From positions 62,001 through 126,000 of the forward strand of contig DAHXKG010000002.1 of the NCBI GenBank assembly GCA_027366525.1: a stretch of DNA of 64,000 bases, read 5' to 3'. Source of the DNA: a candidate division FCPU426 bacterium. Its GTDB lineage: Bacteria > Oederibacteriota > Muellerivitia > Muellerivitales > DAHXKG01. This document shows, one piece after another, positions 49,888 to 64,000 of this stretch (within the stretch, counting starts at the first letter, position 1; every line of letters starts with the position of its first letter). The translations under genes were made by a program, and so were the position numbers. The notes under the pieces are model-generated. The model had not been told where the DNA came from. It saw only the letters and a list, made by a program, of their open reading frames with translations, and ran no database searches.

Positions 49888-52242
49888 GTGACGGATCGCC
49901 AGCGCGGAATATATTTTAAGTTTTTTTGTTTAGGCTTCTTGTTTTTTGCTCCCTTAGCAAGCCAAGCAGCGACGCTTTCCACGGCTACATCAGCTCATCC
50001 ACCGACGATTGCACGAATTCAAGTTGTAGGAAACCATTTTGTACCATCGGTGGTTATTTTAAACCAACTCGAAGAAAAAGTGGGGCAGGCCTTTTCCCTA
50101 CGAAAAGTCCGAATGGACATTCGACATCTATTTTCAACAGGAAATTTTAAAAATATTCAAGTTTATGCAGAGCCATGGATGAATCACAATGAAATTGTTT
50201 TAAAGTATATTGTAACAGAGCGCCCTCGAATTTCTTCAATAACATTTTCTGGAAATAAAAAATGGTCAGCACACCAACTTTTATCTACACTTAAATCAAT
50301 TTCGAATGAGCCTACAGGCATCATTAAATTATCTTCTAAACACAATAATTTGAAGTCGCAGTTAAAAACTAATTTTTATTTGGACCAGCCTTTGGATCCA
50401 GCCGCAATTCTACAATATGTCTTTGCAATAAAACAAAAATACCACAATGCTGGGTATAATGGTATACAAGTTCATGTTCAAAAAAAACTTAATACCTCAA
50501 CCAATACTGTTCAACTTATTTTTAAAATTAATGAAGGCAATATTATTCGAGTAGGGGCAATAAAATTAATCGGTGTTAATCACTTTAGCTTTGATAAAAT
50601 TCTAAGTCAAATGAAGAAGTTGCACAAAGGGCAAATATTTAAATCGAACATGTTGGCAAAAGATTTAAATCGAATTGAAACATTTTACCATGATCATGGA
50701 TATCTGCATGCAGTTATATTACATCATCAACTTGAATATCAGCATGATTTAGTGAATATCTCAATTACGGTATATGAAGGTACGCAGTATCATCTCGGAG
50801 AAATTTCAATTTTCGGAAATACTCTCTTTAGTGATTCTAAAATCGAGAAAGCCTTTGGTATTAAATCGGGCGCACTTTTAAAAAAGAATTTGTTGCAACA
50901 AGGCGTGCGGAATATCCAAAAACTTTATGCAAATCAGGGTTATATTTTTTCCGTGGTTCAAAAGAAACTAACATTTAATAAAACTTTGAAAATTACCAAC
51001 GTGAAGTTAAATATTTCAGAAGGTCAGATTGCTTATGTTCAAGCAATTAAAATTGTAGGAAATTATAAAACGAAAGACTTTGTGATTCGACGAGAAATTG
51101 TTCTTAAACCAGGAGAAAAATTTATTGCTTCTAAAGTTAGAGAATCAATTGAAAATATTTATAATTTGGGATTTTTTTCATCGGTAACTCCTGAAGTGGT
51201 TCCTGGAAGTACACCTGGAAATGAAATATTAATTTTCCGAGTTCAAGAACGTAAGACTGGATCCATTAGTGTTGGAGGTGGCTATAGTTCAGTAGAGCAA
51301 TTAGTTGGAGATGTTTCATTTACCGAAGCAGATTTTAGAGGTATGGGACAAAATTTATCAATTTCCGGAACTTTTGGTGCATTAGAAGTAAGTTATAGTC
51401 TTTCATTCCAAGAACCATGGTTATTTAATACACCCACTTCATTTGGATTTAGTTTGTTTAACACAACAAATATTTTACTTAATTATTATACAGAAAAAAG
51501 TGAGGGCGGTTCAATTTCCCTGGGGCGGAAATTAAGTCGATACTGGACTTGGAATAATACCTATTTAGCTGAAAAAGTAATCATTAATAGTGTTCAACCA
51601 CCTTACAATAGTCCATCGGATCCTCAATACATCCCAAATAGCGTCCAAACAACCAGCAGTTTAACAACACAGCTGACATATGATAGTCGAAATAATTACT
51701 TTTATCCAACCCGAGGGTGGGTAGATGCTATTTCTCTGGAGGGGGCAGGTGGTCCCTTGGGATTACAAACTAATTTTTATGAAATTACGCTTAATGTAAG
51801 CCATTTTATATCAATCTATGGCCCTCTGGTTTTTGCACAACATTTAGAGGGTGGACTTGCCGGGGGATATAGTTGGGCTGGAAGTTATACACAAGTTCCA
51901 ATTTATGACAAGTTTTATTGTGGAGGAGCAGACTCTGTTCGAGGATATGACGATATGTCCATTGGACCAGCTAATGGAGGTGATGTACTCTTTGTTTCGA
52001 ACACGGAACTGCATTTCCCCATCGCCGGGCCGTTGAAAGGGGTATTGTTTTTTGATGCAGGGGATGCATGGGCTCACTTCTATGATGTTACCAATACCAT
52101 TCAATGTGGCGCAGGTCCAGGAGTTCGTTTAACGATTCCAGGCACGATCATGGTTATTCGGTTGGATTATGGATGGGGGATTGATTCAACGATAGCTCCC
52201 AAGGGTGGAAGGCTTGATTTTAGTTTGGGGAATCTATTTTAA
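49888..52242 (+). CDS. bamA: Outer membrane protein assembly factor BamA (Omp85)
   Basis: 784 residues; GTG start with TAGGGGA upstream. The signal peptide is about 1-27 (LASQAA). Five POTRA units can be counted: about 38-105, 106-215, 218-297, 299-377, 380-450. The C-terminal barrel contains GGADSVRGYDD (the VRGF/Y loop-6 motif) and ends in Phe, as a beta-signal. Five POTRAs favour BamA over TamA (three), though the adjacent tamB leaves a shared role open. Inserts beta-barrel proteins into the outer membrane. Confidence 0.94.
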   Translation: MTDRQRGIYFKFFCLGFLFFAPLASQAATLSTATSAHPPTIARIQVVGNHFVPSVVILNQLEEKVGQAFSLRKVRMDIRHLFSTGNFKNIQVYAEPWMNHNEIVLKYIVTERPRISSITFSGNKKWSAHQLLSTLKSISNEPTGIIKLSSKHNNLKSQLKTNFYLDQPLDPAAILQYVFAIKQKYHNAGYNGIQVHVQKKLNTSTNTVQLIFKINEGNIIRVGAIKLIGVNHFSFDKILSQMKKLHKGQIFKSNMLAKDLNRIETFYHDHGYLHAVILHHQLEYQHDLVNISITVYEGTQYHLGEISIFGNTLFSDSKIEKAFGIKSGALLKKNLLQQGVRNIQKLYANQGYIFSVVQKKLTFNKTLKITNVKLNISEGQIAYVQAIKIVGNYKTKDFVIRREIVLKPGEKFIASKVRESIENIYNLGFFSSVTPEVVPGSTPGNEILIFRVQERKTGSISVGGGYSSVEQLVGDVSFTEADFRGMGQNLSISGTFGALEVSYSLSFQEPWLFNTPTSFGFSLFNTTNILLNYYTEKSEGGSISLGRKLSRYWTWNNTYLAEKVIINSVQPPYNSPSDPQYIPNSVQTTSSLTTQLTYDSRNNYFYPTRGWVDAISLEGAGGPLGLQTNFYEITLNVSHFISIYGPLVFAQHLEGGLAGGYSWAGSYTQVPIYDKFYCGGADSVRGYDDMSIGPANGGDVLFVSNTELHFPIAGPLKGVLFFDAGDAWAHFYDVTNTIQCGAGPGVRLTIPGTIMVIRLDYGWGIDSTIAPKGGRLDFSLGNLF

Positions 52243-53323: not shown

Positions 53324-54409
53324 TTACCGATTACGTTCAATGAGTTGCCAAATTCCTAGTCCAGTGAAAGCTAAATCGGGAAACCAGGCGGCTAAAAAGG
53401 GAGTCACGATGCCGGAATCTCCCAAAGCTTGTCCCACTTGAATAAGTCCAACATAAGTAAAGCCCACCAGCAAACAAATTCCAAAACTGGTTGTAACCCC
53501 ACTGTATTTCCCAAGATTCCAGCCCCAGGGGATTCCAAGTAGGATTAAGATGGTACACGAAAAGGGAAAAGAAATTTTCAAGTACAATTCCACTAATTCT
53601 TTATGGTAATCCGAGCCGCGCATTTGAAGTTGGTGAATATAAGCTAACAGTTGTGTGAAATTCAATTCCGTCGAGGTCACGCGTTTTTTGAAAAAATTAG
53701 AGGGTTTCTCAGGCAAATCAACAATTTTTTTATAAAATGGGATGGCATGAATTTCTGAGCCGTTATTTTTAAATGTTCGGAAATATCCGTTATAAAAAAT
53801 CCACTGATCATTCTTGTATTTTGCGGATTGGGCATCGATTCGATAGTTTAGGGTAATGCCGCGTTTAAAACCTAGAATCAAAATATTGGAAAGGGTATTC
53901 GTAAAAGGATTAAAGGTCCCGATGTGATATAAATCATCGTGAGTATCTCGAAAATATAAATTGTGTCGGATCGAAGGTAATGGAGTTACTTTTTTTTCAA
54001 TCTCATATCGTTTAATATGATCCGCGAGTTTTAATGTTTGGGGAACAAACGTTTCATTTAAAAAAATACAAAATCCCGTAAAAAGCAAACCCATTAAAAT
54101 CAATGGACGCGCGATTAAAAAAATGCTAATGCCATTGGCGCGCATAGCAATTAATTCACTTCCCTTGCTGAGATGACTAAGTGCAAACAGGACGGCCATC
54201 AGTCCGGCAATCGGGGCAGTTTCAAGAAGCAAAAAAGGGGTTTGGAGTAAAAAGTATTTGGTAATAATCCATAAACTGGGTTTGTAATCCGTAATTAAAT
54301 AGATTTGATTGAAAATTTGAACAATTAAGATAATCACGGCAAAACTAATCAATGAAAGAAAAAGAGGAGCTAAAAATTCATTGATAATATATTTCGAAAA
54401 AATTTTCAT
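53324..54409 (-). CDS. lptG: LPS export system permease LptG
   Basis: 361 residues with the YjgP/YjgQ layout: three N-terminal helices, a periplasmic beta-jellyroll (about 135-255) and three C-terminal helices. SKGSELIAMRANGISIF in the coupling-helix region is typical. It is second in the pair lptF-lptG and forms the LptB2FG permease that extracts LPS from the inner membrane. lptB is not in the window. Assignment as G rather than F rests on order. Confidence 0.9.
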   Translation of the reverse strand: MKIFSKYIINEFLAPLFLSLISFAVIILIVQIFNQIYLITDYKPSLWIITKYFLLQTPFLLLETAPIAGLMAVLFALSHLSKGSELIAMRANGISIFLIARPLILMGLLFTGFCIFLNETFVPQTLKLADHIKRYEIEKKVTPLPSIRHNLYFRDTHDDLYHIGTFNPFTNTLSNILILGFKRGITLNYRIDAQSAKYKNDQWIFYNGYFRTFKNNGSEIHAIPFYKKIVDLPEKPSNFFKKRVTSTELNFTQLLAYIHQLQMRGSDYHKELVELYLKISFPFSCTILILLGIPWGWNLGKYSGVTTSFGICLLVGFTYVGLIQVGQALGDSGIVTPFLAAWFPDLAFTGLGIWQLIERNR

Positions 54410-54447: not shown

Positions 54448-55590
54448 TCAAATTGATGTCTTTTTTTTGTATGATAAAAACGTTAAAATTTCTCGTTCTT
54501 TTACAGTGAAATAATATAATACACTGCCCAGCACTAAAAAACAAATATTTGGAATCCATAAACCAATAGCCGGCGACAATAAATTTCGCTCACACATCAG
54601 TTCACTGATCATGAATAAGATGTAGTAAATAAAAATAAAAAAAATCCCCAAAATGAAACTCAGGAAACCCTTTTTCCGTAGCCAAATTGCCATGGGAGCG
54701 CAAAACCAGGTTACAGCAAGACAGGCAAACGGTAACGAGAGCCGTTTTTGAAATTCAATTTCTAAACGGTTTTTTTCTTGCGCATGTTGGGTGTGTTGGA
54801 TTTTATGCCACAATTCAAAAAAGTTCATTTCTTTAGGTCCTTTTTTGATGGCAGACATATTTTTAAATTGATTTTCTAAGGTGAGATTAATAATATAATT
54901 TTTGAAATAAACTCGATTGTATATTTGAAAAAATTTATCGCTGGTCCAAGTGCTAACACCATTTTTGAGATCCAGCGAAACTTGAAGGTTTTTCTTGTCG
55001 GTAATTAATTTACCACTTTTGGCAAGCGTGACTTGTAGTGGCGATTTTGAATCCGATTTTAAAAAAACTTCAACATTGCGCAAAATGCCTTGATCATTAA
55101 TTTGACTGATGTAAAATTGGTATCCTGAAAAAGTATTAATGATTTCTTTTTCCTTTAAGGCAACATTAATTTGATTCTCGACGATTTTAAAATATCTTTT
55201 TTTAAAAGCAAAATTGGACTCGGGAAGGATTTGATGGTTGAAATAGACTAATCCTAACGTAAGAATAAGACTAAAAACTAGTGCAGGACCAATGATTTGA
55301 AACGGATGCACGCCACTGCTTTTAAGCGCTAAAACTTCGAGATCGGAGCTCAATCTTCCTAGTGCTAAGAGGGTTGAAATTAAAATGGCCATAGGGATTG
55401 TGGTTGACAAGAAAAAGGGAATTAAATTTAAGTAAAGCAATAGGGCATCCCAAAAAGGCACCCCTTTATTTAAAATTAAATCAAGCCAAGTAAAGATTTT
55501 GTTGAGTAGAAAAAGCGAAGTGATAACCGCTAAACTAAGCAAAAATAAGGGAATAATTTCTTTAAAGACATATCGATGAATGATTTTCAA
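54448..55590 (-). CDS. lptF: LPS export system permease LptF
   Basis: 380 residues, same layout as its neighbour: N-terminal helices, LSSDLEVLALKSSGVHPFQI coupling segment, periplasmic domain (about 135-270), C-terminal helices with WLRKKGFLSFILGIFFIFIYYI. The start is TTG at 55590 with AAGGA 8 bases upstream. It lies 38 bases ahead of lptG. The two together indicate LPS or a related glycolipid in the outer leaflet. Confidence 0.9.
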   Translation of the reverse strand: MKIIHRYVFKEIIPLFLLSLAVITSLFLLNKIFTWLDLILNKGVPFWDALLLYLNLIPFFLSTTIPMAILISTLLALGRLSSDLEVLALKSSGVHPFQIIGPALVFSLILTLGLVYFNHQILPESNFAFKKRYFKIVENQINVALKEKEIINTFSGYQFYISQINDQGILRNVEVFLKSDSKSPLQVTLAKSGKLITDKKNLQVSLDLKNGVSTWTSDKFFQIYNRVYFKNYIINLTLENQFKNMSAIKKGPKEMNFFELWHKIQHTQHAQEKNRLEIEFQKRLSLPFACLAVTWFCAPMAIWLRKKGFLSFILGIFFIFIYYILFMISELMCERNLLSPAIGLWIPNICFLVLGSVLYYFTVKEREILTFLSYKKKTSI

Positions 55591-55784: not shown

Positions 55785-58700
55785 GTGGCTGGAAGGAATA
55801 AATTGTTAATTGATATTTTCCAATTCAGCAAAAAATTTTTTTTTTTGTTTATTGTTTTATTAATTGCTATAGTGTCAAAGTATGCACATGGTCAAAATCT
55901 AGCACCAAGTTTAACGAATCCCTCTCTAGCTCCAGCGCTTTCTTCAAATATTAAAACGATTTTGCAAGCTCCTGAAACGATCAAAACGGTAGTGACACCT
56001 CAAGGCAATACGCTGACCGTTCGGTCTCGAAAATTTTTACTTCCGCCGGGGCATATTTTTTTAAGAAATCTGCCTATCGGGATATATGTTTCTTGGCACC
56101 CCCCCCGGCATGAAAAAAAGATTTCTTATAACGTTTACCGTACTACGATTCCTGGAGCGGATTATCGACGCATCAATGCGCAGCCCGTTACACAAAACTT
56201 TTTTTTGGATGGTGCGCACAGCTTACATCCGCCGCAGAATCATCAAATTTATTTTTATGCGATCGAATCGGTGAATAAGCAAGGTCATGAAAGTGGTTTA
56301 TCGTATGAAATGGTTATTAAAACTCGAAATTTACATTTATCGCGTGCTATTTCACCGGCGATGTTGGCGCGGATGATTTCAAATTCCAACTGGAAAGCAC
56401 CGCATGAAAGCTTGAATTTATTAAATCTTCCTGCTAATGGAGCGATTAATTTGAGCCTTCCAGAAGAAAGTAAACTTTCTATACAAGGCTATAAAAAAAT
56501 ATCGACCCAAATTAATTGGCAAAAATATTACGTCAGCGCTATTAATGGAGTCTCGCCCAACAATACTACAACCAATGTGGACCAAGAGTTGGTACTCAAC
56601 TTAAATGGTGAAATAGGCAAAAATGTGGATGTTCATGTCAATTACAGCGATGTTAACCGCACCGGAACACTCTCGTCTAGTAATCAGCAAATTTCGTTGG
56701 CGTATCATGGTAATCCCAATAGTGCAATTCAAGAAGTGGCGTTTGGCGACTTAACAATGGGGTTCGAAAATACACAATTTGCCGGATTTAACCAGCAATT
56801 ATTCGGTTTAAAAGCTAAAGCGAAAGCTGGACCATTGCATGTAAAAGCTTTTTTTGCCCAAACTACGGGTCAAGTGGCCACACAAACATTTACGGGGAAT
56901 TTGGTCCAACAATCGGTGACCATACTCGATACAAGTTATGTTCAAGGAAAGTATTATCTTATTACCAAACAATTCATTTCTGGGCCTGTTGCCGGAGAAA
57001 ATTATGCATTACCCGAGAACGGGAGTGAGCAAATTTATGTCAGTTCCGGTAATTCAGTAAGCATCACGGGAGGCAGTAACTATATTGGAACGTTTCAACA
57101 TTATTTACCGGGCGTTGACTATACCATTAATTATTCAACTGGTGTCATTACTTTTTCACAGCCCATTCAACCCAATCAGGAAGTTGCAGTGGGTTTTATT
57201 CAAAAAAATGGAACTCCCGTAGGACTGACCCCGACGGGACAGATTAATTTAGATCCCGCTACATTAAATGTTCCAAGCGATGGCATTATTACGAATGCGG
57301 CACATTTGCTTAAACAAAATACGAATCCGGCAGAAGTCAGTCCGTTATATTTAATGAATTACTATTTCTTAGGAACGGCCCCAATTATTCCACCATTAGA
57401 AGATCCTAATTTTATTTTTCAAATTATTAATCAAGGGACCAATGCCGTAGTGGAAAGCAATACTACCCCCAATCCACGATGGACATTTCAAATTAATACG
57501 AATTTGAATTTATTAATTATTGATGATACCACCAATACGGTTTATCCGGAGCGTCCCTTTGCGAATCCAGATGGGGGCACGAGTTCAGGTGATGTTTATA
57601 GTCAAACCACCACTCCCAATAGTCTTTATCGGATCTATATGCAGTACGAAACACAAGTGAACTTTTTTCAATTGAATCAAATTAATATTATCCCATATAG
57701 TGAAGCGGTTTTTTTGGATGGCCGACGATTAATACGAAATGTTGATTATTATATTGACTATACCACCGGGCTTTTGAGTTTTGCTAACCCATCAATGATT
57801 CAACCCAATAGTCAAATTGTGGTAACATATGAATATTCGCCATTTGGATCATCCGCTCAAAGTAATATTTTTGGAGCCCAACTGCAATTGGATTTAACCC
57901 AAAATTTAAAAGTCGGTTCAACAGTATTATATAATTCTGGAACTCAACCGACGGAAATCCCTCAAATTGGTTCAACGCCGAATTCATTAAGCCTGCTGGA
58001 TGCGAATTTAAGTTATAACCTATTTCCCAAGGATTATTTTTCAATAACACGACTTATTCCAGGGTTGGGACGTTGGAAACCTCCCATTAAAACTCAAATC
58101 ACGGCAGAAATTGCTCAAAGTCAATTTTCGCCTAACACGTATAGTATGGATGGCGAATCGGGTGTGGCAATGATTGATTCCATGCAAGGCATTGATACAA
58201 CCGTTGGACCATCGATTGATCCCAATCCATGGATTGTTTCATCAGCTCCTTTGCCAGTGCCGTTTTTAAATGAGGTTAACTATTATGCGGGCCCTGGGGC
58301 TTCAAACAATCGCATTCGATTTCGTAACGGACCTGAAATTTTTGGAGAAAATCTTCCAAATCAAAATGGAGGCGAGCTCTATTCCATTACAGGGAATCCA
58401 TCAGATGCGGTACCAACTTTACAATTTCCATATGCGGATCTTACGAATCAGCGATGGGGAGGTTTGAGGCAAGTGTTATCGCCAACCGGCATGGACATTT
58501 CAAGCTCTAAATATTTGGAGGCTTGGGTTTATAATGATGGTGTGAATAAATGGATTATGTTTGATTTTGGAATTATTTCAGAAGATTCAACGGGAACGGG
58601 AAATTTTTATTATCCGGCAACGCCGCAGGTGCCCTATCAGAATACAGGAATTCCGACGTATTATTTTACCAATCCCAACACCCCCACGACGGGTCCTGCC

Positions 58701-61427
58701 GATGAAACTGGAGCAACTCAAGAAGGTCGTAATGATGGAATTTATGATACCGAAGATATTAATGGAAATAATGAACTCGATACCACGAATTCATATTTTG
58801 AGTTTGGAATCGAAGCGAGTTGGAAAGGATGGCAATTAATAAAAATTCCAATCAATTTCTCATCGCCAGCAGAAACGGCCACGACTTCCACTGGCATTAA
58901 TTATTTCTTTTATCCAGTCAATTCACCCAGCCCACAGAATGTTCAAGCGGTTCGAATTTGGGTTACCGGGACGTCTTCCACTCCAGCGAGCGGAATGTTT
59001 TTATTGCAGTCAGTCGAATTAGTGTATAACCAGTGGCAGTTAGAAGTCGGGGCGACCGCGGCAAGTCAAGGTGCTCAAATCAATCCCAATAAGTTTAATG
59101 TTTCAACAATTGATCAAGAAGATGACCCTAGTTATTCACCAGATTTGAATTTTATTACGATTCAGCCCACGCAAAATCAAAACACCGTGGATACCACACA
59201 ACAGGCTTTGAAAATTGATTATCAACTATCCTCCGAGGATTATTATCCAACGGGAGATGTAGGTGGACATCCGATTTATATGGCCACAAGATTTTTTGGA
59301 ACCCCAATGGATTTTACAAATTATTTGTACCTTGCCTTGGATCTTCAGGCTAAAAATTTCAGACCGGGGGATATTCTGTTTATTCGACTGCAAAATGATG
59401 CAAGCGATTATTTCCAATATAATTTTCCGATTACAAGTGCGGATCTGAATACCTGGCAGACGCTATCGACGCCGATAGATGGGAGTGGAGGGAATCGCGA
59501 TCAAGTGGGTCAACCATTTTTAAATCAAATTACTCAAATTAGTATTGGAGTGCTTTCACCCAGCCAACCTGACGGAATTACCGATGAGTTGTGGTTGACA
59601 AATTTACGAGTTTATGGATCCAACAATCGGATTGGGGGAGCGCAACGATTAGATACCACGTCAATCGTGGGGAATAATTTTATGACCGTGAACACCCGAT
59701 ACCAAGAAGAAGATGCGGGATTCTCAGAAATGGATCAAACGAGCACGCGTTTTCAGGAAACCAAAGATATTGGATTCGATCTTTCCTCCTCGGGGATTAA
59801 ATTGTTTTCTCAACCTGTTTTTACGGATATCTCGTTTAGTAGTGATCAACGCCTTACGCCAGATAGTTTAAAAAACAATCCTTTTTATGAAAATTTAAGT
59901 AATTATAGTAGTTCAAGTTTAATTGGAAAAATCAGTTATAATGGACTAACGCTTCCAATTGGGCTAGGACAGATATCGAATATCCAAATATCCGGCACGA
60001 CCGATACGCAAGCAAATACATATTTGCCATCGTATGCAAGTCAACTAGGAGTGCAAGGGAATAATGATCAAGGTGAAACAAGTTATTCATGGACCGGGAC
60101 GTACCATGCACCACCGGTATTTTTGGGATTGCCTCTAGGAATGAACCAAGTGATTGAGGGTTATTCATATAGTCGCGATTTTGAAAATTTTAATAATCCG
60201 GAATATTATAATTATATGCGACAAACGACCATTCAATCCTATGCTTGGACGAATTCAACTCCCATTTTTAAAAATTTAACCATTACTCCCGGGTACACGT
60301 GGTCCTTAACGGAGGCACAAGGGAATACCAATTTTGCCGGCCAAGCGGGATTTGTGAATAATTATGTGATTTTCCAAAAACAAATGCAGCCCACCTTGGG
60401 CGTTATTTTTCAAGCTATTCCAGGCGTTGTTTATTCTGGGAACTATACGGGACTGAATAATCAAAATTATGCACAAACGCCCGAGAGCCAATATACGATT
60501 TCAAATTCCTTGAATAATACGTTAACCTTTTCACCCGGCGTGTGGCTCCCGTTTTTTCAAAAAATTGGATTATCCGGTAGTTTTGAACGGTCCGATAGTT
60601 CCAATGCGTCCATTTTGAATTTTTCCAGTTTAGCGCCGTTGCAATTTTCACAAGCCTGGGGCTTTAACACTCCTAATAATTTTGCGTATACCGATAATCG
60701 GACGATTTCCGATCAGGCTTCCTTGAATGCGAATCCGTTATCGGTTTTAAGCTTACAATCCAATGTATCTTGGAATAATCAAATAAGTGTTTTATCACCA
60801 GGCGCCGCTCCGGTTCAACAATTAGGAGAAACGGTGGGAATTAGCAGTATTTGGAATCAAGCCATTGTCCATTTTCCAATACTCAATTTTGAAATTGATT
60901 TATTGCAATTACAATATACCTTGAATACGTCAACACAATATGACGCATCCTTTCCGCCCCAAATTGTTAATCAAACGGTTTCAGATGGCTATGGCATTAC
61001 AGTGCCATACGACATCAATCACCATGAAGCTCAGGGACGAATTTTGTATCAATTAACCGAGGGATATGCTTTAAACCGAGGTATCATCACAACGACGCAG
61101 GATTATCAAACGACTCTTGAATATGATCAAAATTTTTCGGGCACCAAAATTATTGGGATCCCGTTTACGAATTTGCATATTGAATTGGTTAATGCGATTG
61201 AAATGCAGATCCTGCTTTCAACCAATTTTTCTAGAGGCCAATCGTCATATTTTTATGATGAAGTATATTCCGATACGTACACAGCCAATCTCAATTTAAA
61301 CTATGATGTGATCAGTAATATTTTATTTGGGCTTCAATTAGCTCGAACTGAATATTTAAACTTTTTAATTCCAACAGAAAGCTATAATCTTTATCAAGCG
61401 ACCATTTCAATTGAGGCAAAATTTTAA
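55785..61427 (+). CDS. SprA-like giant outer-membrane protein (type IX translocon family)
   Basis: 1880 residues, GTG start with GGA about 10 bases upstream, signal peptide about 1-37 (ending HGQN). A fibronectin type III-like domain lies at about 85-182. Then a segment closely follows the SprA N-terminal pattern: LPEESKLSIQGYKKISTQ, ELVLNLNGEIGKNVDVHVNYSD, NSAIQEVAFGDLTMGF, then QQLFGLKAKAKAGPLHVKAF. A repeated unit of the form PGVDYTINYSTGVITFSQPI occurs twice. At about 981-1000 comes the SprA-type acidic stretch DGIYDTEDINGNNELDT. The C-terminal third looks like beta-barrel strands and ends in Phe. In Bacteroidota SprA is the ~2400-residue type IX secretion translocon; this is shorter. Family call from sequence memory; transport role inferred. 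Confidence 0.8.
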   Translation: MAGRNKLLIDIFQFSKKFFFLFIVLLIAIVSKYAHGQNLAPSLTNPSLAPALSSNIKTILQAPETIKTVVTPQGNTLTVRSRKFLLPPGHIFLRNLPIGIYVSWHPPRHEKKISYNVYRTTIPGADYRRINAQPVTQNFFLDGAHSLHPPQNHQIYFYAIESVNKQGHESGLSYEMVIKTRNLHLSRAISPAMLARMISNSNWKAPHESLNLLNLPANGAINLSLPEESKLSIQGYKKISTQINWQKYYVSAINGVSPNNTTTNVDQELVLNLNGEIGKNVDVHVNYSDVNRTGTLSSSNQQISLAYHGNPNSAIQEVAFGDLTMGFENTQFAGFNQQLFGLKAKAKAGPLHVKAFFAQTTGQVATQTFTGNLVQQSVTILDTSYVQGKYYLITKQFISGPVAGENYALPENGSEQIYVSSGNSVSITGGSNYIGTFQHYLPGVDYTINYSTGVITFSQPIQPNQEVAVGFIQKNGTPVGLTPTGQINLDPATLNVPSDGIITNAAHLLKQNTNPAEVSPLYLMNYYFLGTAPIIPPLEDPNFIFQIINQGTNAVVESNTTPNPRWTFQINTNLNLLIIDDTTNTVYPERPFANPDGGTSSGDVYSQTTTPNSLYRIYMQYETQVNFFQLNQINIIPYSEAVFLDGRRLIRNVDYYIDYTTGLLSFANPSMIQPNSQIVVTYEYSPFGSSAQSNIFGAQLQLDLTQNLKVGSTVLYNSGTQPTEIPQIGSTPNSLSLLDANLSYNLFPKDYFSITRLIPGLGRWKPPIKTQITAEIAQSQFSPNTYSMDGESGVAMIDSMQGIDTTVGPSIDPNPWIVSSAPLPVPFLNEVNYYAGPGASNNRIRFRNGPEIFGENLPNQNGGELYSITGNPSDAVPTLQFPYADLTNQRWGGLRQVLSPTGMDISSSKYLEAWVYNDGVNKWIMFDFGIISEDSTGTGNFYYPATPQVPYQNTGIPTYYFTNPNTPTTGPADETGATQEGRNDGIYDTEDINGNNELDTTNSYFEFGIEASWKGWQLIKIPINFSSPAETATTSTGINYFFYPVNSPSPQNVQAVRIWVTGTSSTPASGMFLLQSVELVYNQWQLEVGATAASQGAQINPNKFNVSTIDQEDDPSYSPDLNFITIQPTQNQNTVDTTQQALKIDYQLSSEDYYPTGDVGGHPIYMATRFFGTPMDFTNYLYLALDLQAKNFRPGDILFIRLQNDASDYFQYNFPITSADLNTWQTLSTPIDGSGGNRDQVGQPFLNQITQISIGVLSPSQPDGITDELWLTNLRVYGSNNRIGGAQRLDTTSIVGNNFMTVNTRYQEEDAGFSEMDQTSTRFQETKDIGFDLSSSGIKLFSQPVFTDISFSSDQRLTPDSLKNNPFYENLSNYSSSSLIGKISYNGLTLPIGLGQISNIQISGTTDTQANTYLPSYASQLGVQGNNDQGETSYSWTGTYHAPPVFLGLPLGMNQVIEGYSYSRDFENFNNPEYYNYMRQTTIQSYAWTNSTPIFKNLTITPGYTWSLTEAQGNTNFAGQAGFVNNYVIFQKQMQPTLGVIFQAIPGVVYSGNYTGLNNQNYAQTPESQYTISNSLNNTLTFSPGVWLPFFQKIGLSGSFERSDSSNASILNFSSLAPLQFSQAWGFNTPNNFAYTDNRTISDQASLNANPLSVLSLQSNVSWNNQISVLSPGAAPVQQLGETVGISSIWNQAIVHFPILNFEIDLLQLQYTLNTSTQYDASFPPQIVNQTVSDGYGITVPYDINHHEAQGRILYQLTEGYALNRGIITTTQDYQTTLEYDQNFSGTKIIGIPFTNLHIELVNAIEMQILLSTNFSRGQSSYFYDEVYSDTYTANLNLNYDVISNILFGLQLARTEYLNFLIPTESYNLYQATISIEAKF

Positions 61428-61428
61428 A

Positions 61429-64000
61429 ATGAATAATTTAAATAGGGGAGCCAAAATTAGTCGAGTGGATAAGCATTGCTTCCAAATTTGGATTGCTGGA
61501 ATTTTCATTGGGATGGGATTTATTTTACCTTGGAAAGCGTACGCTCAATGGCCATCCGCTCCATCGGGCTTGACGGTTGTAGCTCCTTATAATGGGCAAG
61601 TCAATCTTATGTGGACCCCCTTGCCGGCCGCAACGGCGTATGGGGTCAGTAAAACATTAGTGGATCTAAGTCCGACGGAGACCCCAACCCCTTCTCCAAC
61701 CGGGACATGGAATCCCACACCGACCGATACCTCCACCCCGATTTTAAGCAGTAGCTATCAGGATTTTCAGGTCACAAATGGACGGACTTATTTATACCAA
61801 GTTTGGGGTTTGAATTTGGCAACCCCAGGTACGCCAAGTGCGATTACCGTGTCCCCCTATAGTGCTCCGCAATCTATTTCCACCGTCACGATTTCTCATC
61901 AATATTCTAATGCTTTAGAGCTTTCGTGGAATGTGCCCTTATCAACATATCCAATCCAGTATTATAATATTTACCGATCGGCCTTAATTCTATCACCTAC
62001 ACCAACATTAGCCGGGGGGAGTACAGCAACTCCGACAGCAACTCCCACAGGCACTTGGGCCACATCGACGCCGACCGATACGCCTACGATTTCACTTACC
62101 CCGATCCCTGCAGCGGAAGTTTTAACGCAAAATCCAACGCCGATTGCTACCGCATTGACTACTTCCTTCATTGATCAGACTGCAACGTCTTTGAATGCCG
62201 CAGCGGTTTATTATCTAGTACAAGCAGTTGATAGTCAGGGTAATTTGGGAGCAACCCCGCTCTGGTCCACGATTCCTGCCTTACCAGAAAATTTAGCTCC
62301 TGCAATCCCAAATCTGTCGACGACGATTGCAAGCCAATATGGATATGGAGTTAACTTATTTTGGCCGAGTCCGTTGTCTAGTGAAGGCGTGGAATACTAT
62401 CAAATTTATCGAAATGCAACTCCAATTGCGACCTTAGTGCCAACGCCATCCGTGCCCACCCAAAATTATATGGATAGTCAAGTTCCATTTGCGCCAGGCC
62501 CGGGTATCAATGTCAACTATCAAATAGAAGCAGTTAATGTGTATGGATCAACAACATCCAATTTGGCTTCAACGAGTATTTATCAAGCTTCAATGTACGG
62601 CAATATTCAAGTTACACCGAATGCCACTACACAAGCAGTCACCATTAGCTGGAGTTCAGCTCAACCGGGGTCGTATGGTTTAGCAGGATACCAGATTTAT
62701 AAAAGTCAAAATGGATTGCCAGTTCTTACAGAAACACCCATTGTTTCAGGAAGTCCTACGGCCACGGCGACGGTTACGCCCATTGCCACACTAGCAATTC
62801 CTCCAACCAGCACGCCCAGTGCGAGTCCGGTTTATGTTGATTATCCAGTCACGGATGCCAATGGGTGGACATATTGGGTTCAACCGTACGATAGCTTAGG
62901 GCTAGGCGGAGTGATGGCATATGCTACTCCGGTGTCGTTAAATTTAGCTCCAACTCCAGTGGCCACCGTGGTTGCATCAGGTCCGATAGGTAATAATGAA
63001 ATGAGTGTTTCATGGACGTGGAATAATCCAGGATTTTATTCCACTCCAGCTCCAAGTGCCTATGTAATTTATCGTAATTTGGTCAACACGCCAACGCCTC
63101 AGGCGATTGCAACAGTTGTTTATCCACAAAATACATATCTCGATGACGTGACTCAAGCCATGGCAGGTACACCCGTGGCTTATCAAGTAGCTGTGGTGGA
63201 TGCACTGGGGAATACCTCAAATTTATCAAGTCTTTCAAATGAAGTTTTTGCTCAGGCCTTGCAGGTTCCATCGGCACCCGAAAGTATTCAAATCAGTCAA
63301 TCAAATTCAAATTTAATTTTTTCATGGTTATTAAATCCATCGTCCGATGAAGTCGATACATATCAGGTTTTTGGATCGGCTTGGGCTACCATGACAATTA
63401 CTCCAACTCCCTTAGCCACCATTATTCCATCATCCTCAATGCAATTTATCCAAGCGAATGTCACGCCGGATACGATTACTCCAGAATATTTATTAGCCCA
63501 CAATAGTCAAGGCTTTAGTACTCCGGCGACTCTCGCGGGTATTTTATTAAATCCGTATCAGGTAAGCGCTAGTATTGCTACACCGACTCCCGAAGTGAAT
63601 GTTTCGTGGACAATTCAGATCACACCGATTGCTACACCTCCCATTACCAGTTTTGAAATATTGAGATCAACAACGAGTGGAGCCAATTTTGTTCCGATTG
63701 CTACCGTTCCTGTTTCTGAAAACAGTTTTATAGATACGACTGCTCAGGCGGGTGTTTCTAATTATTATCGCGTGATTGCCCAAAGCGCTTTTGCCGGAAC
63801 TACTTTCTTGGCCACCAGTGCAATATATCCTACCATAACGCCCATTCCTGAAGCTGCAATGCTGACTTGGCCGACTGTTCCACAGGGATTGACTGCCAAT
63901 GCGGGGGAAACTGAAACGACGCTTTCATGGTTACCCGATTTAAGTGGAAATCAAGTTCAGGATTATCAAATCTATCAGGACGGAAGTCCGACGCCGATTG
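61429..64000 (+). CDS. Multi-fibronectin type III surface/secreted protein with Thr-Pro-rich insertions (3' end outside window)
   Basis: ATG one base after the SprA-like stop; open to the window end (857 codons), so incomplete. Signal peptide about 1-40 (FILPWKAYAQ). About eight tandem FnIII modules follow, each with a Trp strand (ELSWN, NLFWP, TISWS) and a YxIYR-like strand. In several modules a Thr/Pro/Ala/Ser-rich tract (PTPTDTSTP, TPTATPTGTW, TATATVTPIAT) is inserted just after that strand; others have only TPIAT-like remnants. Likely exported and surface-exposed. The C-terminal anchor or type IX signal, if any, lies beyond the window. Base composition is visibly more GC-rich where the tracts occur. 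Confidence 0.85.
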   Translation, partial: MNNLNRGAKISRVDKHCFQIWIAGIFIGMGFILPWKAYAQWPSAPSGLTVVAPYNGQVNLMWTPLPAATAYGVSKTLVDLSPTETPTPSPTGTWNPTPTDTSTPILSSSYQDFQVTNGRTYLYQVWGLNLATPGTPSAITVSPYSAPQSISTVTISHQYSNALELSWNVPLSTYPIQYYNIYRSALILSPTPTLAGGSTATPTATPTGTWATSTPTDTPTISLTPIPAAEVLTQNPTPIATALTTSFIDQTATSLNAAAVYYLVQAVDSQGNLGATPLWSTIPALPENLAPAIPNLSTTIASQYGYGVNLFWPSPLSSEGVEYYQIYRNATPIATLVPTPSVPTQNYMDSQVPFAPGPGINVNYQIEAVNVYGSTTSNLASTSIYQASMYGNIQVTPNATTQAVTISWSSAQPGSYGLAGYQIYKSQNGLPVLTETPIVSGSPTATATVTPIATLAIPPTSTPSASPVYVDYPVTDANGWTYWVQPYDSLGLGGVMAYATPVSLNLAPTPVATVVASGPIGNNEMSVSWTWNNPGFYSTPAPSAYVIYRNLVNTPTPQAIATVVYPQNTYLDDVTQAMAGTPVAYQVAVVDALGNTSNLSSLSNEVFAQALQVPSAPESIQISQSNSNLIFSWLLNPSSDEVDTYQVFGSAWATMTITPTPLATIIPSSSMQFIQANVTPDTITPEYLLAHNSQGFSTPATLAGILLNPYQVSASIATPTPEVNVSWTIQITPIATPPITSFEILRSTTSGANFVPIATVPVSENSFIDTTAQAGVSNYYRVIAQSAFAGTTFLATSAIYPTITPIPEAAMLTWPTVPQGLTANAGETETTLSWLPDLSGNQVQDYQIYQDGSPTPI

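What the first reader, a model, noticed from the sequence alone, without database searches (positions are those of the whole stretch)
55785..61427. SprA-like giant barrel outside an obviously Bacteroidota context
The N-terminal third reproduces the SprA pattern (IQGYKKI, QELVLNLNGEIGKNVDVHVNYSD, IQEVAFGDLTMGF, QLFGLKAKAKAGPLHV). The middle has the DGIYDTEDINGNNELDT-type stretch and the last residue is Phe. SprA is the outer-membrane translocon of the type IX secretion system. Here the protein is shorter (1880 versus about 2400 residues), begins with a FnIII-like domain and lies beside lptFG and a candidate exported cargo. No porV, gldKLMN or porU is in the window. It could be a reduced type IX system or a related export channel with a different job.
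Basis: partly seen in the sequence, partly recalled or inferred. Interest (0 to 1): 0.85.

Follow-up and report, generated by a model that had tools for sequence, protein, structure and literature searches.

The report
Type IX translocon in Goldbacteria relatives
This gene encodes a giant outer-membrane export channel (SprA) of a type IX-like secretion system that a whole candidate bacterial phylum outside the Bacteroidota group appears to use to send cellulases and other enzymes to the cell surface, although the usual motor and cargo-cleaving sortase could not be found.

Summary
The 1880-aa protein at 55785-61427 scores 242.5 bits with the SprA model (cut-off 200). Its family profile finds F. 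johnsoniae SprA in the PDB (E=4e-51), and both AlphaFold halves match SprA structures first (E=8e-41, 1e-23). The C-terminal model shows a large barrel. The genome belongs to the FCPU426/Goldiibacteriota/Firestonebacteria phylum, not Bacteroidota. SprA is found in 40 of 45 species by HMM, with fragments in up to three more. PorV-family shuttles and C-terminal type IX sorting domains (CTDs) occur in 45 of 45. The own genome has 7 PorV-family and about 15 CTD proteins, including several glycoside hydrolases and a subtilase. CTD genes sit directly upstream of PorV genes 28 times in four genomes (0.3 expected). All 39 CTDs examined end the protein and carry the loop motif; 30 have lysine at -6. 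A PorU-type sortase is absent from the own genome; GldL, GldM and GldN were not detected, but no positive control was available. Best reading: a SprA-PorV-CTD export system, a variant of type IX secretion with an N-terminal FnIII domain, dedicated shuttles and an unknown power source. The held literature confines type IX to the FCB superphylum.

The parts
55785..61427 (+). SprA/Sov-family outer-membrane translocon, 1880 aa
   Evidence: TIGR04189 242.5 bits, cut-off 200; PDB profile match to 6h3i SprA E=3.8e-51; fold matches to SprA E=8e-41 and 1e-23
55785..55892 (+). Sec signal peptide (about aa 1-36, ...FFFLFIVLLIAIVSKYAHG|QN); start codon GTG, an in-frame TTG at 55803 is an alternative
   Evidence: read from the sequence; cleavage site inferred
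56049..56324 (+). N-terminal FnIII domain (about aa 89-180), ahead of the first region that matches SprA
   Evidence: FnIII chains hit by the A1 profile in its N-terminal part; model strands and Foldseek matches to FnIII domains
56463..56975 (+). SprA N-terminal conserved block (profile 95-260), predicted first barrel strands
   Evidence: TIGR04189 stretch 75.6 bits; family profile aligns here to 6h3i residues 148-336
57606..58253 (+). SprA central block (profile 576-789)
   Evidence: TIGR04189 stretch 93.2 bits
58713..59453 (+). SprA block (profile 1077-1337)
   Evidence: TIGR04189 stretch 44.4 bits
59583..61424 (+). C-terminal part of the barrel, 26 long strands (aa 1267-1880), ends in the conserved Phe
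   Evidence: AlphaFold model, mean pLDDT 78; F1880 nearly invariant
61411..64000 (+). Downstream FnIII-repeat protein (1495 aa in all; runs past the window end) with a C-terminal CTD-like domain ending ...NYQSINKIAVIK
   Evidence: full ORF in L053:7412-11899; C-terminus matches PorZ, PorU and T9SS M6i C-termini, best 8e-9 among family members, and also FlgD; such a gene follows SprA directly in 10 of the 17 loci where the next gene is visible
54448..55590 (-). LptF/LptG-type permease, divergent from SprA (conserved neighbour, not part of the translocon)
53324..54409 (-). second LptF/LptG-type permease
   Evidence: translation, by inspection
49888..52242 (+). BamA, the likely inserter of the barrel (role inferred)
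   Evidence: TIGR03303 465.5 bits

Best explanation
The protein is the outer-membrane translocon of a type IX-like secretion system. Proposed steps: (1) Cargo proteins cross the inner membrane by Sec. (2) Their C-terminal Ig-like CTD enters the SprA pore and binds loops of a PorV-family barrel docked at SprA's lateral gate. (3) The PorV-cargo complex leaves sideways to the cell surface. In this lineage one or a few general PorV proteins would serve orphan cargos (mostly glycoside hydrolases), while other cargos have a dedicated PorV-type shuttle encoded immediately downstream. With no PorU-type sortase in this genome, cargo CTDs would probably stay on and hold the cargo to its shuttle at the surface. 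SHOWN by computation: SprA identity, a large barrel fold, PorV-family and CTD proteins genome- and phylum-wide, their tandem gene pairing, cargo identity. INFERRED: the transport cycle (from F. johnsoniae), general versus dedicated shuttles, surface retention, the role of the N-terminal FnIII domain. UNKNOWN: what supplies energy for release.
For: SprA: TIGR04189 over the curated cut-off for this protein and four relatives; PDB profile hit to SprA E=3.8e-51, the other hits being FnIII-type chains; the top four Foldseek hits for each half are the four SprA structures, far ahead of the next hit. Barrel: 26 long strands in the last 614 residues. Retention: 40/45 species by HMM including 24/25 good-quality genomes; the other good-quality genome carries a 90%-identical fragment. 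PorV family 45/45, CTD 45/45; own genome 7 and about 15. 28 CTD->PorV tandem pairs in four genomes against 0.28 expected, gaps 92-253 bp. 39/39 examined CTDs lie within 20 aa of the C-terminus, K at -6 in 30/39, loop motif with conserved Gly in 39/39; a highly conserved type A CTD lysine contacts PorV in RemZ (PMC10994853), and the C-terminal and loop motifs are needed for secretion in P. gingivalis (PMC11285876). Cargos: GH5 x2, GH8, GH44/39-like, GH116+malectin, subtilase. The cellulolytic habit of Goldbacteria is published (PMC7031533).
Against: No experiment exists in this phylum. GldL, GldM and GldN were not detected, and in F. johnsoniae substrates stay trapped on SprA without the motor (PMC10994853), so an energy source must exist that was not identified. 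The CTD domain is also FlgD-Ig-like, so single CTD hits could be generic Ig domains. The PorV family also includes proteins without a proven shuttle role. Two incomplete genomes (65% and 84%) gave only FnIII matches in the SprA search.
Confidence: 0.85

Rival explanations
1. A complete type IX system with a diverged GldLM/PorKN-type motor and ring that Bacteroidota-trained models miss; nothing but distance separates it from the canonical system.
For: The GldM and GldN models rang nowhere, including controls, so absence is not proven. Weak sub-threshold GldL matches occur in three genomes. The translocon and CTD features look functional, and the known mechanism needs energy for release (PMC10994853).
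Against: SprA and PorV models of the same origin ring clearly in the same genomes, so all three motor/ring parts would have had to diverge more. No motor-like gene was seen in the SprA neighbourhoods; the 545-aa membrane protein before SprA in several families is chemoreceptor-like.
Confidence: 0.35
2. A motor-replaced type IX system: energy comes from an ExbBD-TonB type motor, for instance the own-genome operon encoding a 977-aa TPR protein, a 585-aa protein of no family, ExbB, ExbD and TonB.
For: The operon exists at contig C22 about 187-194 kb. TPR scaffolding plus a proton-driven motor resembles SprE/PorW plus PorLM in outline.
Against: TPR/ExbBD/TonB operons are common in bacteria and usually serve TonB-dependent uptake (general knowledge). 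The TPR protein has no visible lipobox. No genetic link to sprA was found, and conservation across the phylum was not tested.
Confidence: 0.15
3. A SprA-derived channel with a different job, such as lipid or glycan transport linked to lptFG, with CTD/PorV proteins unrelated to it.
For: lptF/lptG-type genes lie divergently next to sprA in many relatives.
Against: The gene directly downstream of sprA encodes a CTD-like protein in 10 of 17 loci. CTD and PorV genes are paired and phylum-wide. Only one SprA locus is found in the own genome. Neighbours other than the CTD protein vary between families.
Confidence: 0.05
4. Contamination or recent transfer of a Bacteroidota gene into one assembly.
For: The genome is a 33-contig draft assembly.
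Against: The gene sits on a 273-kb contig with housekeeping genes and is present across the phylum with shared neighbours (lptF/lptG-type, comF-like, gapA, pgk) at 24-47% identity.
Confidence: 0.01

Closest known systems
SprA (Flavobacterium johnsoniae) / Sov (Porphyromonas gingivalis), type IX translocon, TIGR04189, PDB 6h3i/8gl8
   Same: Same family by HMM over the cut-off, by PDB profile match over chain residues 148-1577, and by fold in both halves; large barrel, conserved blocks in the same order.
   Different: 1880 aa instead of about 2400. One FnIII domain here (more in some relatives) precedes the first matched block; profile positions before 95 (before 63 in any listed relative) were not matched. 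In F. johnsoniae the SprA N-terminus is the SkpA-binding region (PMC10994853).
PorV/PorQ family (NF033709) and type IX type A CTD (TIGR04183)
   Same: Seven PorV-family proteins, most over the curated cut-off, and about 15 C-terminal CTD proteins in the own genome, with the conserved loop and C-terminal lysine.
   Different: Many PorV paralogues (up to about 40 per genome) and CTD->PorV tandem gene pairs. In F. johnsoniae a single PorV serves all type A cargos and pairing is known for type B CTDs with PorP/SprF shuttles (PMC12618676).
Canonical type IX secretion system of Bacteroidota/FCB (PorKLMN/GldKLMN, PorU)
   Same: Translocon, shuttle family and cargo signal are shared.
   Different: No C25 sortase in the own genome and in 41 of 45 held genomes; no GldM or GldN match and no GldL match over cut-off in 45 genomes (no positive control); host phylum outside the FCB group to which published statements confine T9SS.
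Poribacteria SprA homologue (L102, L103)
   Same: Full-length homologue (hhalign probability 100%, 1525 columns; TIGR04189 150 bits).
   Different: Different phylum and below the SprA curated cut-off; its wider system was not examined.

Membership tests
SprA/Sov translocon family (TIGR04189) | Score above the curated equivalog cut-off of 200 bits | tested here: met
   242.5 bits; four relatives 202-264 bits
SprA/Sov translocon family (TIGR04189) | Giant single-chain outer-membrane barrel (36 strands in F. johnsoniae SprA) | tested here: met
   26 long strands in aa 1267-1880, 4 more in about 694-782 and about 6 near the N-terminus, roughly 36, counted by eye from two separately folded halves; SprA structures are the top Foldseek hits. 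The exact closed barrel was not modelled.
SprA/Sov translocon family (TIGR04189) | SkpA-binding N-terminal region | tested here: inconclusive
   Profile positions before 95 were not matched and an FnIII domain lies there; binding itself not testable
Type IX secretion system | PorV-type shuttle | tested here: met
   NF033709 in 45/45 genomes, 7 in the own genome; family membership only, shuttle function not tested
Type IX secretion system | Cargo with C-terminal Ig-like CTD | tested here: met
   TIGR04183 in 45/45, about 15 in own genome; all 39 examined are C-terminal
Type IX secretion system | PorU C25-family sortase | tested here: not met
   PF01364: none in the own genome, 4 of 45 in the phylum
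Type IX secretion system | GldL/GldM (PorL/PorM) proton-driven motor | tested here: inconclusive
   GldL none over cut-off, GldM 0/45; no positive-control genome available
Type IX secretion system | GldN/PorN ring component | tested here: inconclusive
   TIGR03523 0/45; no positive control
Type IX secretion system | GldK/PorK, SprE/PorW, PorE, PorT, SkpA, translocon PPI | not tested
Type IX secretion system | CTD-dependent transport across the outer membrane | not testable with these tools
   Needs experiment

The most novel reading that the evidence does not exclude
A phylum-wide type IX-like export system outside the FCB superphylum that works without the GldLM rotary motor and without PorU. 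Each type A-like cargo either uses a general PorV or its own PorV-type shuttle encoded next door, and release from SprA is driven by another energy source or by folding and shuttle binding alone. It would show that the SprA-PorV-CTD module is the ancient, self-sufficient core and that the motor, gliding and sortase are later additions.
Probability: 0.4. Interest if true: 0.85.

Novelty: new variant of a known kind. Interest (0 to 1): 0.68.

Why it matters
Published reviews and surveys in the held library confine type IX secretion to Bacteroidota or the FCB superphylum, one stating that its genes are absent from other phyla (PMC11285876, PMC4793230, PMC8754138). A candidate phylum with a retained SprA, PorV-family shuttles and CTD cargos widens that range. 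It offers a natural test of which parts are essential, above all the motor. It also gives a concrete, testable answer to how the cellulose-degrading Goldbacteria may bring their cellulases to the surface.

Tried and rejected
Direct phmmer of the single protein against the PDB found nothing; the family profile was needed. Pfam alone gives only spurious weak hits for this protein. The 'phage tail tube' hits are far below cut-off and ignored. The 545-aa and 220-aa genes before sprA in several families were considered as motor parts: the longer is chemoreceptor-like, the shorter a small membrane-anchored protein with no sign of a motor, and neither was seen beside sprA in the own lineage. The MotA_ExbB hits in the own genome are one in a flagellar operon and two TolQ/ExbB-type operons. 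Three of the five apparent SprA absences are explained wholly (G040) or probably (G018, G021) by fragmentary assembly. A first regular-expression attempt to collect CTD tails missed most of them and was replaced by coordinates. A Poribacteria control for GldM could not be run.

Full report
WHAT IS THERE. The ORF at 55785-61427 (+) is real: GTG start, 1880 residues, a Sec-type signal peptide, terminal Phe. NCBIfam's equivalog model for the type IX translocon, TIGR04189, scores 242.5 bits against a cut-off of 200, E=6.4e-72. Searched stretch by stretch in the genome, the match covers profile positions 95-260, 576-789, 897-959, 1077-1337 and 1394-1489 in order, and it is the only such locus in the 2.02-Mb, 97.5% complete genome. 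Pfam and a single-sequence PDB search do not see it. A 19-member family profile does: F. johnsoniae SprA (6h3i, 6h3j and others) at E=3.8e-51 over chain residues 148-1577, the other hits being FnIII-type chains aligned to the N-terminal part.

STRUCTURE. AlphaFold2 of residues 681-1880 with 23 homologues gave mean pLDDT 78 and pTM 0.51, with 26 long strands from residue 1267 to the end and four more near 694-782. Foldseek against the PDB puts the four SprA structures first (best E=8.3e-41; the first unrelated hit is 1.7e-6). Residues 70-800 gave mean pLDDT 70; the FnIII domain at about 89-180 is well predicted, a linker at about 200-300 is not, and about six early strands follow. Foldseek again puts SprA first (1.4e-23), with FnIII domains after it. 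TM-scores are modest because each query is half of a giant barrel and the relative positions of inserts are uncertain. The strand total of roughly 36 is counted from two separate models and should be read as 'SprA-sized', not exact.

WHOSE GENOME. Named relatives found by the one genome-collection scan are titled mostly candidate division FCPU426, Candidatus Goldiibacteriota and Candidatus Firestonebacteria; one is labelled Coatesbacteria and two are Poribacteria outliers. NCBI taxonomy keeps FCPU426 and Goldiibacteriota as phyla of uncertain place. The Goldbacteria paper places that group beside Firestonebacteria and Elusimicrobia and equates FCPU426 with it (PMC7031533). The closest named relatives of this protein are FCPU426 assemblies at 41-42% identity. 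This is not a Bacteroidota genome.

PHYLUM-WIDE RETENTION. Of 45 species genomes held for the phylum, 40 ring with the SprA model, 24 of 25 among good-quality genomes. The remaining good-quality genome, G040, carries a 254-aa fragment 90% identical to its relative's SprA, and two more (G018, G021) have weak C-terminal matches; only G012 and G025, 84% and 65% complete, gave FnIII matches alone. Neighbours recur: divergent lptF/lptG-type genes, then sprA, then an FnIII/CTD protein or a comF-like gene, then gapA and pgk. This looks old and mostly vertical, inferred from synteny.

THE REST OF THE EXPORT MODULE. The PorV/PorQ family model rings over its cut-off in 45 of 45 genomes, with 7 matches in the own genome, one of them 1.2 kb before the window. 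The CTD model Por_Secre_tail rings over cut-off in 45 of 45, with about 15 proteins in the own genome. Because this domain resembles FlgD-Ig, I looked for independent support. (a) All 39 CTDs examined end within 20 residues of the protein's C-terminus and 30 have lysine at position -6. (b) All 39 carry the strand 3-strand 4 loop motif with its glycine, by a permissive pattern. Both regions are needed for secretion in P. gingivalis (PMC11285876), and a highly conserved CTD lysine contacts PorV in the trapped F. johnsoniae translocon (PMC10994853); that the two lysines are equivalent is my inference. (c) In four genomes, 28 CTD genes are followed on the same strand by a PorV gene, CTD match end to PorV match start 92-253 bp, where 0.28 would be expected. 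Point (c) ties CTD and PorV together functionally.

CARGO. In the own genome CTD-tailed or CTD-like proteins include two GH5 cellulase-type enzymes, a GH8, a GH44/39-like enzyme, a GH116 with malectin, a subtilase with its own PorV-type partner, and large surface-type proteins. Goldbacteria cellulases have been shown active in vitro (PMC7031533); that paper mentions secretion only in a reference title. The protein directly downstream of sprA is a 1495-aa FnIII-repeat protein with a C-terminal domain matching the C-termini of PorZ (best 8e-9 among relatives) and PorU, which keep their CTDs in P. gingivalis. It may therefore be a translocon-associated surface protein rather than ordinary cargo; this is inference.

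WHAT IS MISSING. The sortase family of PorU is absent from the own genome and present in only 4 of 45. GldL gives no match over cut-off; GldM and GldN give none at all. The tool warns that nothing rang anywhere for the last two, so absence is not shown; I could not obtain a control genome. The own genome has one flagellar MotA and two TolQ/ExbB-type operons; one of these follows a 977-aa TPR protein and ends in TonB. I list it as a candidate power source only.

MECHANISM. In F. johnsoniae the CTD binds PorV loops inside the SprA pore and energy is needed to pull the PorV-cargo complex out through a lateral opening (PMC10994853). The parts needed for loading are present here. The two differences of interest are the lack of a detected motor and the dedicated PorV-type shuttle beside many type A-like cargos. 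In F. johnsoniae one PorV serves all type A cargos, and such pairing is described for type B CTDs with PorP/SprF shuttles (PMC12618676). Without PorU, cargo probably stays attached through its CTD.

NOVELTY. The papers held describe type IX as specific to Bacteroidota or the FCB superphylum, one saying its genes are absent from other phyla. No held paper links FCPU426 or Goldbacteria with type IX secretion except through a reference list. Automatic annotation may already label such proteins 'T9SS', and most subscription papers and all preprints are outside the library, so 'unreported' is only 'not found here'. I file the protein as a member of the SprA family, and the system as a new variant of type IX rather than a canonical member, because PorU was tested and not found and the motor test is inconclusive.

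Noticed in passing
L102:9338-15751 and L103:9350-15772 (Poribacteria): A full-length SprA homologue also exists in Poribacteria (hhalign 100%, 1525 columns; 150 bits with TIGR04189 for L102), so SprA reaches further than this phylum.
   Followed up: partly
G000 contig C22 about 187-194 kb (L181:4214-10747): An operon encoding a 977-aa TPR protein, a 585-aa protein matching no Pfam family, ExbB, ExbD and TonB; a possible alternative energiser, function unknown.
   Followed up: partly
L048, L049, L050, L051, L052: In several families a 220-aa membrane-anchored protein, and in most a 545-aa chemoreceptor-like protein, lie between a glycosyltransferase and sprA.
   Followed up: partly
window 55785-61427, within the modelled part aa 681-1880: Foldseek finds CBM11-like jelly-roll folds within SprA (ranks 33 and 50, TM 0.60-0.62 normalised to CBM11); position not resolved.
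   Followed up: no
G022, G019, G014 and others: Some PorV-family matches lie in open frames of 550-800 residues, so PorV barrels may be fused to other domains.
   Followed up: no
L168:16655-17638, L172:3-866, L175:3-788: CTD proteins with long threonine-proline repeats break at contig ends in this draft genome.
   Followed up: no
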